In this document: one piece after another, positions 3,055 to 35,073 of the stretch
How the letters are laid out: every line of letters starts with the position of its first letter
Numbering within the stretch: the first letter of the stretch is position 1
Source of the DNA: a virus
Virus record (IMG/VR): IMGVR_UViG_3300042482_000702
Coordinates: 258,478-322,477 of that record
Direction: 5' to 3' (one strand)
DNA: 64,000 bases
Translations under genes and position numbers: made by a program
Notes under the pieces: generated by a model
Database searches by the model: none
What the model was told of the DNA's origin: nothing
What the model saw: only the letters and a program-made list of their open reading frames with translations

Positions 3055-3463
3055 GGGAGTGACACGGAATTGACTATTCGTAATAGTTATTCGGGGCACG
3101 TAGTGAGATGTTCTCTATCACTTAAATCTATGGGTACAACAATTTAGACGGAAACGTTTTAAACAAAATGGCTCTAGTAGGTCTTGTACGTCAAGATGAG
3201 CTTGTGAACGTAGCGTAAGCAAACACACATTGGGGTCGACGGATATGTGTACCTAGCAACAGAAATATCTTAAGGTGTGATACCACCCGAAGAGTGTCAA
3301 GGTCTCGTTTGAGGGTCTACCTATTAAAGTGAACCTCCCACAGTTGTAGGTAATGATGGAAAAATTAGAACCTTCTATTTGTCAGTTGAGAATTAACTGA
3401 ATAAACGTGTAGTCCTTAATAGGTAATACAAATAACACTTGGGTTCGAGTCCCAACACTTCCA
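3055..3463 (+). ncRNA. ssrA: tmRNA (transfer-messenger RNA)
   Basis: The acceptor stem GGGAGTG (3055-3061) pairs with CACTTCC (3456-3462) with one G-U pair, followed by discriminator A. The T-arm TTGGG-TTCGAGT-CCCAA (3039+400 region, 3439-3455) is perfect, and the 5' end continues ACACGGAATTGAC as in tmRNAs. A tag frame ends at TAA 3216-3218 and reads ALVGLVRQDELVNVA from 3171; the true resume codon could lie a few codons upstream. It would rescue stalled ribosomes together with the SmpB encoded 550 bases away on the other strand. The ending NVA differs from the usual LAA-type degron. Confidence 0.9.
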
Positions 3464-3474
3464 CGTCCACTGGA

Positions 3475-4005: not shown

Positions 4006-4032
4006 AAAAAAGGGACTATTTCAAGTCCCTTT
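4006..4032 (-). terminator. terminator overlapping the smpB stop codon
   Basis: GGGACT-TGAAAT-AGTCCC followed by seven T on the minus strand. The 5' arm encodes the last SmpB codons and the TAG stop lies at the loop-stem junction. Confidence 0.8.
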
Positions 4033-4453
4033 TCATATCTCTTTCGATGTCCCGAGATTTGATGGTATCTCGTTTATCGTATGTTTTCTTCCCTTTGGCA
4101 AGAGCAATTTCCATTTTAATTAATCCGGTGTCGTTTATGAAGATACGATAAGGAACGATGGTTACACCATTGATTAACTCATTCTCCCACTTATTAAGTT
4201 CTTTTCGTTTGGCTAATAGTTTTCTATCCTTTACGGTCTCGTGGAAGGACCCAAACCCATAATCGGAGATATTCATCCCCTTTATAAATAACTCCCCCTC
4301 ATTGAAATAACAATACCCTTCAGAGATGGATACCTTTCCCTGACGAATGGACTTTACCTCTGAACCAACTAGTTTGATTCCCACAATTAATGTCTGTAGG
4401 AATGAATACTCAAACTTGGCTTTCTTATTGACTATGTTAATTGAATTTTTCAT
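4016..4453 (-). CDS. smpB: SmpB, tmRNA-binding protein
   Basis: A 145-residue protein with the family's full set of motifs: GSEVKSIRQGKVSISEGY (about 31-50), the central ISDYGFG segment, and the basic C-terminal tail ALAKGKKTYDKRDTIKSRD (about 118-137) that enters the ribosomal mRNA channel. SmpB brings alanyl-tmRNA to stalled ribosomes. A phage tmRNA gene sits next door, so the pair probably forms a self-contained rescue system. The promoter -7 box ends 4 bases before the ATG, giving a leaderless mRNA. The length is typical (about 150 residues). Confidence 0.93.
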   Translation of the reverse strand: MKNSINIVNKKAKFEYSFLQTLIVGIKLVGSEVKSIRQGKVSISEGYCYFNEGELFIKGMNISDYGFGSFHETVKDRKLLAKRKELNKWENELINGVTIVPYRIFINDTGLIKMEIALAKGKKTYDKRDTIKSRDIERDMKRDLK

Positions 4454-4520: not shown

Positions 4521-5406
4521 TGGCTTAATACGATGAGAATACTCGTCTTATTGAGAATCTTCGGAAGGATTATTGTTTCCCTTCGTTTCCACCATCTTTT
4601 GAATGGTAACCCTCATTGCCGATTGGTTAGACCAATCACTCCTTGAGATATCATCTACTCTCTCATTATTCAACTCTCTTTAACCTTGCGAGCTAACTCC
4701 GGATTCGACTCCGTAGAGGTTTTTGGCGAGAATACATTCAGACTTGCGGTCATCCTGTGCAACGAACGGCTCGTTACTATGTAGGCAACTTGTCGACGAT
4801 ACCTGGTAAACATTTTTGCTATTGTCTATTTAGTTTTTCACCATATGAAAATAGTTAATGTGTTGTGGATGTATTCAGGAAGTAGTTTACCGTAAGCTCC
4901 CTAACCTTTTGGGTTAAAGAATACTAAACTTCCCGATGAGATATCCCTATCTCCAAATTTCAAGAATTCTTCAAATCAATATCTTGGTAGATATTTGATA
5001 GGGATAAAGTCAGCACCACCTGTTACTTAATCTTGCCTTTCGGCGTTAAGATTCCTTTTATTTTGGAACCCGCAATTATAAGGTCGGATAACCCTATTTC
5101 TTACTTGATTCCTATGGGTTCTTCTTATCTTGATTCCTCAATCAACCGGACAATCCACATTGCCAAGTTAGTATTCCATTTCCCTACGAAGTTATCCTCG
5201 GTACTACAGGACTACTAATATCCCACTTGCTTACTCGAGTTCGGTTTCCCAAACCACAAAATCACTAACACAAATGATTTCATTTTATCCCCGTTTCCGG
5301 GATTATTTAAAGATGATAAGCCACCTATTATCTTTGATACAACACCGAAGTGTTATAATGGATAATCTAAAATTTCTAAGAACGTCTTTAAGGTTTCCCT
5401 TAATTG
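4486..5406 (-). ncRNA. giant structured noncoding RNA (about 920 nt), unassigned class
   Basis: No convincing ORF exists here on either strand, yet the stretch has its own perfect promoter (5412-5442) and terminator (4486-4520). The minus-strand transcript is packed with ideal hairpins: TTAAGG-GAAA-CCTTAA (5388-5403), AACAC-TTCG-GTGTT (5341-5354), CCCG-GAAA-CGGG (5287-5303), GGTTT-GGG-AAACC (5243-5255), TTGATT-GAGG-AATCAA (5130-5145), AATCTT...GCC-GAAA-GGC-AAGATT (5029-5053), GATTGGT-CTA-ACCAATC (4621-4637), plus a 10-bp long-range helix between 4997-5006 and 4942-4951. Size, tetraloops, phage origin and position beside tRNA genes recall the GOLLD and ROOL giant RNAs, but I cannot align it to either. 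It is not RNase P, tmRNA or an obvious intron. Confidence 0.75.
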
Positions 5407-5470: not shown

Positions 5471-5564
5471 AAATGTGTTGTGTAAGCTCTACCACTGCAG
5501 CTAAACCTTGGTCACCAGGATTACGGTTGTTGGAATCGAACCAACGACTCTACACGACACATTT
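5471..5564 (-). ncRNA. permuted tRNA-like RNA A
   Basis: Read 5' to 3' on the minus strand: a terminal stem AAATGTGTCGTGT / ACACAACACATTT (13 positions, one mismatch), a canonical T-arm GTTGG-TTCGATT-CCAAC, a hairpin AACC...GGTT with a 17-nt loop where the acceptor would be, and then a canonical D-arm TAGCTGCAGTGGTAGAGCT. The T-arm therefore precedes the D-arm, the reverse of a tRNA gene, and the RNA ends lie where the anticodon arm would be. It is either a circularly permuted tRNA gene or a tRNA mimic such as a YrlA-type Y RNA. It shares a promoter (5776-5807) with the next two RNAs. Confidence 0.65.
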
Positions 5565-5568
5565 ATAG

Positions 5569-5659
5569 TGGTATCAGATGGATTCGAACCACCGGCACAG
5601 GGTTTTTCAGAACCCTTGCTCTACCAAGGAAGATAAATCTCCCACTGAGCTATAATACC
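5569..5659 (-). tRNA. atypical tRNA, Phe(GAA)-like with expanded D-loop and 8-nt anticodon loop
   Basis: The acceptor GGTATTA/TGATACC, TA at 8-9, D-stem GCTC/GAGC and T-arm GGTGG-TTCGAAT-CCATC are in normal order with discriminator A. The D-loop is about 25 nt and contains its own hairpin GGGAGAT-TT-ATCTTCC. The anticodon arm AGGGT-TCTGAAAA-ACCCT leaves 8 loop bases around GAA (or a 6-bp stem with a 6-base loop). A normal tRNA-Phe exists at 34700. This copy may be non-decoding, a frameshifting tRNA or a decoy. Confidence 0.6.
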
Positions 5660-5670
5660 ATATAAAATAA

Positions 5671-5745
5671 TGTGGGTGTATGCTCTACCATCTGAGCTAC
5701 GGATTTGAAACCGGAGGGATTTGAAACCTCGACACAACACCCACA
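5671..5745 (-). ncRNA. permuted tRNA-like RNA C
   Basis: A perfect 9-bp terminal stem TGTGGGTGT/ACACCCACA encloses, in order, a T-arm-like hairpin GAGG-TTTCAAATC-CCTC, a short hairpin CGG-TTTCAAAT-CCG in the acceptor position, and a canonical D-arm TAGCTCAGATGGTAGAGC. This repeats the inverted T-then-D order of RNA A. There is no free acceptor end and no room for CCA, so it is unlikely to be a directly aminoacylated tRNA. Confidence 0.65.
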
Positions 5746-5775: not shown

Positions 5776-5807
5776 CAAAGATAATACATTTATTTTAATC
5801 TGTCAAA
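5776..5807 (-). promoter_or_regulatory. host-type promoter of the tRNA-like cluster
   Basis: Minus strand TTTG, 20 bases, TATCTTTG at 5776-5783, upstream of the RNAs at 5471-5745. Confidence 0.75.
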
Positions 5808-6053: not shown

Positions 6054-6130
6054 TAGTCAGAACAGGATTCGAACCTGTGTACCCTCGTATGAGTTCGTCA
6101 TACCGTGCATCTCCAATGTGCTACCTGACT
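6054..6130 (-). tRNA. tRNA with unusual anticodon arm (isotype uncertain)
   Basis: The acceptor AGTCAGG/TCTGACT, TA at 8-9, T-arm ACAGG-TTCGAAT-CCTGT and discriminator A are all good. The anticodon arm folds as GTATGA-CGAAC-TCATAC, or with a 7-base loop ACGAACT that lacks U33, so no anticodon can be assigned with confidence (GAA by position). Confidence 0.6.
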
Positions 6131-6163
6131 ATGTTTCGTTAATGTTAAAAACTGTTCAATCAC

Positions 6164-6907: not shown

Positions 6908-7447
6908 ATGGTAACAATTAACAATGACATATCATTTACTAAAGAATTTATAAATCAATTAGTCCCATTAATTCCAAAAGAAGTACATGAATTTTGGAAA
7001 CCAAATTATTCTAATACTGGTTTAGTTAGATTCGTTAACAACAAATTTGATGCAGTATATATCGCATCTCCTAGCATATATGGACAACATAACTTAATTA
7101 AGTTCAATGTTGTTAAAGATAAGTATATATTTGATTCTGTATATTCTCATTATGATGTTATTACTAAAAAGGATATTCATCCATGGGAACATAGATACGA
7201 TAAAGATTTAAATGTAATAGCAACATATAAATTTGCTGAATCTGAATATGAGGGGTTTTTATCTATACAATACAAAGATGGTAAAAAGTTAAAAGAATAT
7301 TTATATCAGACTGAATTATTTCAACCAGAAGTATTCAAAGACTTATGGAACACAAATACAATAACCACCAAGGTTAAAAATATTTACAATATTAATTGTT
7401 TAAGAATTAATGGAAATAAAGAAATTGGGTATTATTGGATTAGATAA
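6908..7447 (+). CDS. hypothetical protein inserted at the lipoprotein 3' end
   Basis: A 179-residue soluble protein of unknown family, rich in aromatic residues (YGQHNLIKFNVV, HPWEHRYDKD). It sits between the lipoprotein gene and a copy of that gene's last codons, so it looks like a recent insertion that duplicated the target end. No nuclease motif is visible that would make it self-mobile. Confidence 0.6.
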   Translation: MVTINNDISFTKEFINQLVPLIPKEVHEFWKPNYSNTGLVRFVNNKFDAVYIASPSIYGQHNLIKFNVVKDKYIFDSVYSHYDVITKKDIHPWEHRYDKDLNVIATYKFAESEYEGFLSIQYKDGKKLKEYLYQTELFQPEVFKDLWNTNTITTKVKNIYNINCLRINGNKEIGYYWIR

Positions 7448-23831: not shown

Positions 23832-23904
23832 TGGTCCCGGAGAATTACGATATCCCGACTTCTACATTATGAGTGTAGCACTCTAACCTCTGAGTTACGA
23901 GACC
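23832..23904 (-). tRNA. tRNA-Met(CAT)
   Basis: Acceptor GGTCTCG/CGGGACC, D-stem ACTC/GAGT, anticodon arm CTACA-CTCATAA-TGTAG, discriminator A. The T-loop ATCGTAA departs from the usual TTC start. First of three CAT tRNAs; initiator, elongator and Ile2 cannot be told apart here. Confidence 0.85.
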
Positions 23905-28962: not shown

Positions 28963-29043
28963 CGCTATTAATACCTTTAACCCATACTCTCGGAACACTA
29001 TGGAGATGGAATCAAACCATCTAATAACCCGTCGGTTATAGCG
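28963..29043 (-). ncRNA. permuted tRNA-like RNA, third candidate
   Basis: Minus strand order: CGCTAT, AACC-GACG-GGTT hairpin, T-arm GATGG-TTTGATT-CCATC, hairpin CCATA...TATGG in the acceptor position, a D-like TTAA-AGGTA-TTAA hairpin, and the closing ATAGCG. The T-before-D layout matches the RNAs at 5471 and 5671, but the arms are less canonical. Confidence 0.4.
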
Positions 29044-29120
29044 TCAGCCTTATATTTCCTATCTTTTGGAGATAACTTTCGTCTGTCACCTTATTCAACC
29101 TTATATGAATAAATCTTTTG

Positions 29121-29227
29121 CCCTTCCAGTGGGAATCGAACCCACATACTCTTAATACATTCTTGGAATGGTTACCGGAGGGAGATGTATTCGTCTCTGT
29201 GTTTTGCTCTTTTTAAACTACAGAAGG
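29121..29227 (-). tRNA. tRNA-like with oversized anticodon/variable region
   Basis: Acceptor CCTTCTG/TGGAAGG, TA at 8-9, D-stem GTTT/AAAC and T-arm GTGGG-TTCGATT-CCCAC are good, discriminator G. About 54 bases lie between the D- and T-arms, with an AATACAT/ATGTATT helix, so no anticodon can be assigned. An intron-like insertion or a decayed tRNA are both possible. Confidence 0.45.
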
Positions 29228-29233
29228 ATTTTG

Positions 29234-34699: not shown

Positions 34700-34772
34700 T
34701 GGGGACTACCGGTTACGCTCCGGTCTCCTTGATTCTTCAGACCAATGCTTTCACTAGATTAGCTTAATCCCC
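34700..34772 (-). tRNA. tRNA-Phe(GAA)
   Basis: Acceptor GGGGATT/AGTCCCC, anticodon arm TTGGT-CTGAAGA-ATCAA, T-arm ACCGG-AGCGTAA-CCGGT, discriminator A. This is the canonical Phe tRNA; compare the odd copy at 5569. Confidence 0.88.
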
Positions 34773-35002: not shown

Positions 35003-35073
35003 TACCTCGTGATGGTTATGCTCCACCGCCATTTGTATGTAAAACAAATACGCTCCTATTACGCCAACGAGGT
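35003..35073 (-). tRNA. tRNA-Val(TAC)
   Basis: Acceptor ACCTCGT/ACGAGGT, anticodon arm TTTGT-TTTACAT-ACAAA, T-arm GGTGG-AGCATAA-CCATC, discriminator A. Confidence 0.88.

What the first reader, a model, noticed from the sequence alone, without database searches (positions are those of the whole stretch)
5471..5745. tRNA-like RNAs with T-arm upstream of D-arm
RNAs at 5471-5564 and 5671-5745 (and more weakly 28963-29043) have a canonical T-arm, then a closed hairpin at the acceptor position, then a canonical D-arm, with their 5' and 3' ends paired where the anticodon stem would be. This is the order of a circularly permuted tRNA, and also compatible with tRNA-mimicking Y RNAs (YrlA type) bound by Ro60 in bacteria and phages. 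The lack of an acceptor gap in the 5671 RNA argues against simple permuted-tRNA processing.
Basis: partly seen in the sequence, partly recalled or inferred. Interest (0 to 1): 0.87.

Follow-up and report, generated by a model that had tools for sequence, protein, structure and literature searches.

The report
Ro60-less YrlA-like tRNA mimics beside GOLLD
A very large bacterial virus carries two small RNAs that fold like the elbow of a transfer RNA but with the arms in rearranged order and no decoding loop; they are almost unchanged between related viruses, sit beside a giant RNA called GOLLD, and appear to have lost the piece that normally docks such RNAs to the Ro60 protein.

Summary
The two main RNAs are real, on the minus strand: A (5745-5671) and B (5564-5471). 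Each has T-arm, closed hairpin at the acceptor position, D-arm, and ends paired where the anticodon stem would be. A model built only from 23 other phage YrlA-type RNAs ranks them first and second in the window (48.3 and 32.4 bits). A is 75/75 and B 94/94 identical in relatives whose neighbouring sequences are 74-96% identical; A's outer stem shows three compensatory changes in more distant relatives. They are neither decayed tRNAs nor permuted-tRNA precursors. The third candidate (28963-29043) fails.

They match the YrlA core but lack the Ro60-side motif and anticodon-like hairpin of phage Y RNAs encoded near Ro60. No Ro60 gene was found in the 322-kb record or in 17 other records carrying A or B. 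They form a cassette with a third non-decoding tRNA-like RNA (5659-5568, miscalled tRNA-Pro), behind a Bacteroidota-type promoter and just upstream of GOLLD.

Most likely: free-standing tRNA-elbow mimics that occupy tRNA-binding proteins. Fold, conservation and context are shown; the mechanism is inferred. New variant of a known kind (bacterial Y RNA tRNA mimics).

The parts
5776..5807 (-). Promoter-like TTTGACA...TATCTTTG (Bacteroidota -33/-7 type) upstream of A
   Evidence: Pattern match; 100% identical in three relatives and recognisable in more distant ones. That this is the Bacteroidota consensus is from general knowledge.
5671..5745 (-). RNA A: permuted tRNA-like RNA (YrlA-like core, 75 nt). 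Outer stem 5745-5737 with 5679-5671; T-arm 5730-5714; closed hairpin 5713-5700; D-arm 5697-5682
   Evidence: RF02553 41 bits; model R1 48.3 bits; 100% identity in 3 relatives; three compensatory pairs in the outer stem
5568..5659 (-). RNA M: tRNA-like RNA in normal arm order with a hairpin inserted in the D-loop and a 6- or 8-nt (never 7-nt) anticodon loop; ARAGORN's 'tRNA-Pro UGG' is a miscall
   Evidence: D-loop hairpin 100% paired in 9 variants
5471..5564 (-). RNA B: second permuted tRNA-like RNA (94 nt). T-arm 5545-5529; closed AACC/GGUU hairpin 5528-5504; D-arm 5501-5486 with a G.G mismatch; outer stem AAAUGUGU.GUGUA / UACAC.ACACAUUU
   Evidence: RF02553 26 bits; R1 32.4 bits; 100% identity in 2 relatives; absent in L161
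5412..5442 (-). Promoter-like TTTG...TACCTTTG upstream of GOLLD
4530..4936 (-). GOLLD RNA, conserved 3' part (the whole RNA probably runs from about 5405 to about 4490)
   Evidence: RF02032 288 bits; terminator-like hairpin 4521-4488
4016..4453 (-). SmpB gene; tmRNA lies at 3055-3466 on the plus strand (context)
   Evidence: PF01668 159 bits; RF00023 62 bits
9398..11892 (-). RNA-repair-like cluster (context): T4-type RNA ligase 10423-9398, AAA_33 kinase 10945-10562, metallophosphatase 11892-11230
   Evidence: Pfam matches

Best explanation
A and B are small phage RNAs that copy the elbow of a tRNA: T-arm next to a short closed acceptor helix, and a D-arm, with their own ends joined in a stem where the anticodon arm would be. 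They share the tRNA-like core of bacterial YrlA Y RNAs but have lost the Ro60-side part. They are probably transcribed with the tRNA-like RNA M from one promoter just upstream of GOLLD. Most likely they work as free-standing mimics that occupy host proteins recognising the tRNA elbow, such as tRNA-cleaving defence nucleases or tRNA-modifying or processing enzymes. With no open acceptor end and no anticodon loop they cannot be charged or cut there. Shown: sequence fit to the fold, conservation, covariation, promoter-like site, link with GOLLD, lack of the Ro60-type motif. Inferred: transcription, elbow binding, decoy role.
For: Top two hits of a model trained only on other phage YrlAs. A shares the invariant GUC, T-arm and D-arm columns with 23 phage YrlAs, whose closed hairpin covaries. 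A 75/75 and B 94/94 identical in relatives where M is 88-89%, the GOLLD 3' half 74-76% and the smpB gene 92-96% identical. Outer stem of A kept by compensatory changes in L207/L208. 17 viral contig stretches carry A and/or B, and the loci that extend far enough have GOLLD just downstream. No TROVE hit in those records. The neighbour M also lacks a normal anticodon loop, and its counterpart in L210 has GGAA there, so a set of non-decoding tRNA shapes is kept. An RNA-repair-like cluster lies 4-6 kb away. For Salmonella YrlA, which is not cut by the RecA-dependent anticodon nuclease, competitive inhibition of that nuclease was proposed as one possibility (PMC7790460). YrlA is a substrate of tRNA-modifying enzymes (PMC8394870).
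Against: No expression or binding data. A's T-loop closing pair is not G-C, which may weaken recognition by some elbow enzymes. Covariation in A's outer stem comes from one lineage (L207/L208). In most A variants and in B a T-rich run follows the outer stem, so the stem could also serve termination, although L207/L208 keep A's stem without a clear run. The consistent neighbourhood with GOLLD could mean a joint function instead.
Confidence: 0.45

Rival explanations
1. A and B are partners or cargo of GOLLD: tRNA shapes made next to it that enter or help assemble the GOLLD cage.
For: In the A/B loci that extend far enough, GOLLD lies just downstream on the same strand. GOLLD forms a 14-mer cage with an empty interior, and phage tRNAs, sometimes present in its linker, were proposed as contents (PMC12286853). 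In this phage group the tRNA shapes next to GOLLD probably cannot decode.
Against: GOLLD in the Ro60-bearing huge phages is flanked by tRNAs in ordinary order, with no A/B found. Separate promoter-like sites precede A and GOLLD. Phage tRNA arrays, GOLLD and odd RNAs cluster in general.
Confidence: 0.2
2. Ordinary Y RNAs: they bind a Ro60 protein of the host, or one encoded in the missing part of the genome, and tether it to an exonuclease as in RYPER.
For: YrlA-like core. 17 of 33 phage contigs holding YrlA candidates from a pattern scan have TROVE over the cut-off, one more below it. The record is a fragment.
Against: A and B lack the TTACTTCG-type motif and the extra hairpin of Ro60-linked phage Y RNAs. 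No TROVE in the 322-kb record or in 17 A/B records, which reach about 264 kb on one side of A (this record) and 284 kb on the other (G072).
Confidence: 0.17
3. Circularly permuted tRNA genes whose transcripts are joined at the anticodon and opened at the acceptor to give working tRNAs.
For: Arm order is that of a permuted tRNA.
Against: Acceptor helix only 3-4 bp with a loop of 8 nt or less in A and no removable spacer; ends form a perfect 9-bp stem with no anticodon loop; no 7-bp acceptor in any of 8 variants.
Confidence: 0.02
4. Decayed pieces of two neighbouring ordinary tRNAs.
For: Tandem tRNAs can mimic the arm order and even reach high model scores.
Against: No missing halves in the flanks: a promoter-like site lies directly upstream of A and M begins 12 nt downstream. 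100% conservation and compensatory changes.
Confidence: 0.01

Closest known systems
YrlA, bacterial Y RNA (Rfam RF02553; Salmonella YrlA)
   Same: T-arm, closed acceptor-like hairpin, D-arm order; GUC before the T-arm; paired ends
   Different: 75-94 nt only; no Ro60-side motif or anticodon-like hairpin; below the Rfam gathering score; no Ro60 gene found; A and B paired around a third tRNA-like RNA beside GOLLD; A's T-loop closing pair is not G-C
Phage Y RNAs encoded near Ro60 (e.g. L151, L152, L035, L072, L082)
   Same: Same core, found by the same pattern and model
   Different: Those carry the Ro60-linked motif and mostly lie within about 2 kb of a TROVE gene
Circularly permuted tRNA genes (algae, archaea)
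   Same: Arm order
   Different: No open acceptor, no anticodon, nothing to splice out
GOLLD with associated phage tRNAs
   Same: Next to GOLLD in the loci seen
   Different: A, M and B have their own promoter-like site and are not part of the GOLLD covariance model match
tmRNA and other tRNA mimics
   Same: Use of T-arm and D-arm mimicry
   Different: No aminoacylatable acceptor and no message part

Membership tests
YrlA / bacterial Y RNA | tRNA-like core: T-arm, closed acceptor-like hairpin, D-arm in that order | tested here: met
YrlA / bacterial Y RNA | 5' and 3' ends pair in a long stem | tested here: met
   9-bp stem of A paired in 8 of 8 variants, three compensatory pairs
YrlA / bacterial Y RNA | Reaches the Rfam gathering score (69 bits) | tested here: not met
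   41 and 26 bits
YrlA / bacterial Y RNA | Ro60-side stem with the motif common to Ro60-linked phage Y RNAs (TTACTTCG type) | tested here: not met
   Absent in all A and B variants; present in most Ro60-linked ones
YrlA / bacterial Y RNA | Encoded near a Ro60 (TROVE) gene | tested here: not met
   No TROVE in own record or 17 A/B records; records are fragments
YrlA / bacterial Y RNA | Binds Ro60; substrate of tRNA-modifying enzymes | not testable with these tools
   Needs biochemistry
Circularly permuted tRNA | 7-bp acceptor stem split by a removable spacer | tested here: not met
   3-4 bp closed hairpin
Circularly permuted tRNA | Anticodon at the joined ends | tested here: not met
   Ends form an uninterrupted helix in A
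tRNA (element M) | 7-nt anticodon loop | tested here: not met
   6 or 8 nt in 9 of 9 variants

The most novel reading that the evidence does not exclude
Huge phages keep a dedicated cassette of non-decoding tRNA shapes (two permuted, one with a D-loop insert) that has shed Ro60 and works together with the GOLLD RNA cage, for example to sequester tRNA-binding host factors: an RNA-only system built of tRNA mimics and an RNA compartment.
Probability: 0.12. Interest if true: 0.9.

Novelty: new variant of a known kind. Interest (0 to 1): 0.6.

Why it matters
The role of the tRNA-like part of bacterial Y RNAs is not settled. Here it is kept almost without change where the Ro60-binding part appears lost, so its own function can be tested free of Ro60. 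The fixed place beside GOLLD, a giant RNA with a known cage structure but no known function, gives a concrete lead for GOLLD as well. The related tRNA/Y-RNA chimeras suggest that phages rearrange tRNA and Y RNA modules freely.

Tried and rejected
Third candidate 28963-29043: rejected by comparison with relatives and by model score. Permuted tRNA and decayed tRNAs: rejected. RF02553 and R1 hits in the Ro60-bearing huge phages are mostly junctions of tandem tRNAs, not YrlA. Locating the expected Ro60 place by synteny failed because the window's phage is only distantly related to the Ro60-bearing group (helicase about 20-24% identical). A/B pattern in 84,980 bacterial and archaeal species genomes: no hit. 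The primary YrlA paper Chen 2014 is not held; statements about YrlA come from PMC7790460 and PMC8394870.

Full report
What was checked. The window is the end of a 322,477-base virus record. On the minus strand the order is: a variable tRNA (6130-6054), a promoter-like site (5807-5776), RNA A (5745-5671), a tRNA-like RNA M (5659-5568), RNA B (5564-5471), a second promoter-like site (5442-5412) and GOLLD (model match 4936-4530, 288 bits), followed by a terminator-like hairpin (4521-4488). SmpB and a tmRNA follow.

The observation. A and B have T-arm, closed hairpin and D-arm in that order, with paired ends. Rfam YrlA matches at 41 and 26 bits, below its gathering score of 69; A's hit has E 1.5e-8 over the record. 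To avoid circularity I scanned viral contigs with a loose arm-order pattern, removed matches overlapping tRNAs, and obtained 36 places, 34 of them with a hairpin between the two arms. A model of 23 of these, without A or B, ranks A and B first and second in the window. In those 23 sequences plus three of the A family the closed hairpin shows changes on both sides at all six pairs. The same model also scores closely spaced tandem tRNAs up to 53 bits elsewhere, so score alone does not prove the case.

Conservation. In three relatives (L158, L160, L161) A is 75/75 identical, and in two of them B is 94/94 identical, while M is 88-89%, the GOLLD 3' half 74-76%, the SmpB gene 92-96% and the 455-aa gene 86% identical. 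With 10% divergence the chance of no change in 169 bases is about 2e-8. More distant A variants change the loop of the closed hairpin, and L207/L208 change three pairs of the outer stem on both sides. This comes from one lineage, so it is good but not abundant covariation. The pair closing A's T-loop is never a standard pair, unlike in the other phage YrlAs.

Ro60. Of 33 contigs with YrlA candidates from the pattern scan, 17 have a TROVE protein over the cut-off and one more below it; most of those RNAs have a TTACTTCG-like motif upstream of the T-arm, often followed by a small anticodon-like hairpin. A and B have neither. No TROVE was found in the own record or in the 17 A/B records. The own record reaches 264 kb on one side of A and G072 reaches about 284 kb on the other. 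The genomes are incomplete and the two records are different phages, so absence is probable, not proven. Huge phages with related GOLLD, such as LR745206, do encode a Ro60-like protein, but the window's phage is only distantly related to that group, and A/B were not found near GOLLD there.

The cassette. M is called tRNA-Pro by ARAGORN, but the sequence aligned over nine variants has an inserted D-loop hairpin, always paired, and an anticodon loop of 6 or 8 nt, never 7; relatives of M are not given a normal anticodon by ARAGORN, and the counterpart in L210 has a GGAA loop in place of the anticodon loop. So the cassette holds three tRNA shapes that probably cannot decode. In the A/B loci with enough sequence GOLLD follows on the same strand.

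How it may work. The best-supported reading is a set of free-standing tRNA-elbow mimics. What they bind is not known. A decoy for tRNA-directed host factors fits the missing anticodon, the closed acceptor, the strong conservation, the nearby RNA-repair-like genes and the suggestion made for Salmonella YrlA (PMC7790460). A role with GOLLD is the main rival, given the published cage and its proposed tRNA contents (PMC12286853). Binding to a Ro60 of the host remains possible.

Verdict. The feature is best called a YrlA-like tRNA mimic rather than a proven Y RNA, because the Ro60-linked features were tested and not found.

Noticed in passing
L189:1426-1552, L174, L176:1707-1834, L182 (Ro60-bearing huge phages): tRNA-like RNAs with intact 7-bp acceptor, D-arm and T-arm in which the anticodon arm is replaced by a stem carrying the Ro60-linked GAGTTACTTCG motif: in effect YrlA with the ends moved back to the acceptor.
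   Followed up: partly
L177:1947, L191:1849, L193:1935, L190:1629, L125:2133: The reverse arrangement: a Y RNA stem with the same motif takes the place of the acceptor stem of a normally ordered, Leu-type tRNA shape.
   Followed up: partly
L134-L150, about 400 nt upstream of Ro60: Two plain Y-RNA-like stems with TTACTTCG or ATACTTCG motifs directly upstream of the phage Ro60 gene, without a tRNA-like part.
   Followed up: no
L014, L024, L054, L055, L059, L098, L111: YrlA-like RNAs on contigs up to 326 kb without a TROVE hit, several sharing a different outer stem (AGGAT...ATCCTGTT) instead of the Ro60-linked motif: possibly a second Ro60-less class.
   Followed up: no
window 5568-5659; L123 about 6067-6163 and 7261-7358: tRNAs or tRNA-like RNAs with a hairpin inserted in the D-loop lie next to GOLLD in several huge phages.
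   Followed up: partly
window 29120-29232: tRNA-like sequence with a long insertion in the anticodon region (AATACAT...ATGTATT), conserved in L214; not called by ARAGORN.
   Followed up: no
window about 33.8 kb, 33.74 kb and 30.78 kb, minus strand: Recurrent paired segments gtgttgttcctgtgagagggga ... cacagaggagttctcaacctca between tRNAs, perhaps another small RNA family.
   Followed up: no
window 23832-23904, 34700-34772, 35003-35073, 6054-6130: tRNAs found by Rfam but missed by ARAGORN.
   Followed up: no
L198 and L211, between A and M: An extra structured insert bracketed by TCTAA...TTAGA separates A and M in this lineage, and B is replaced by another hairpin RNA: the cassette is modular.
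   Followed up: no
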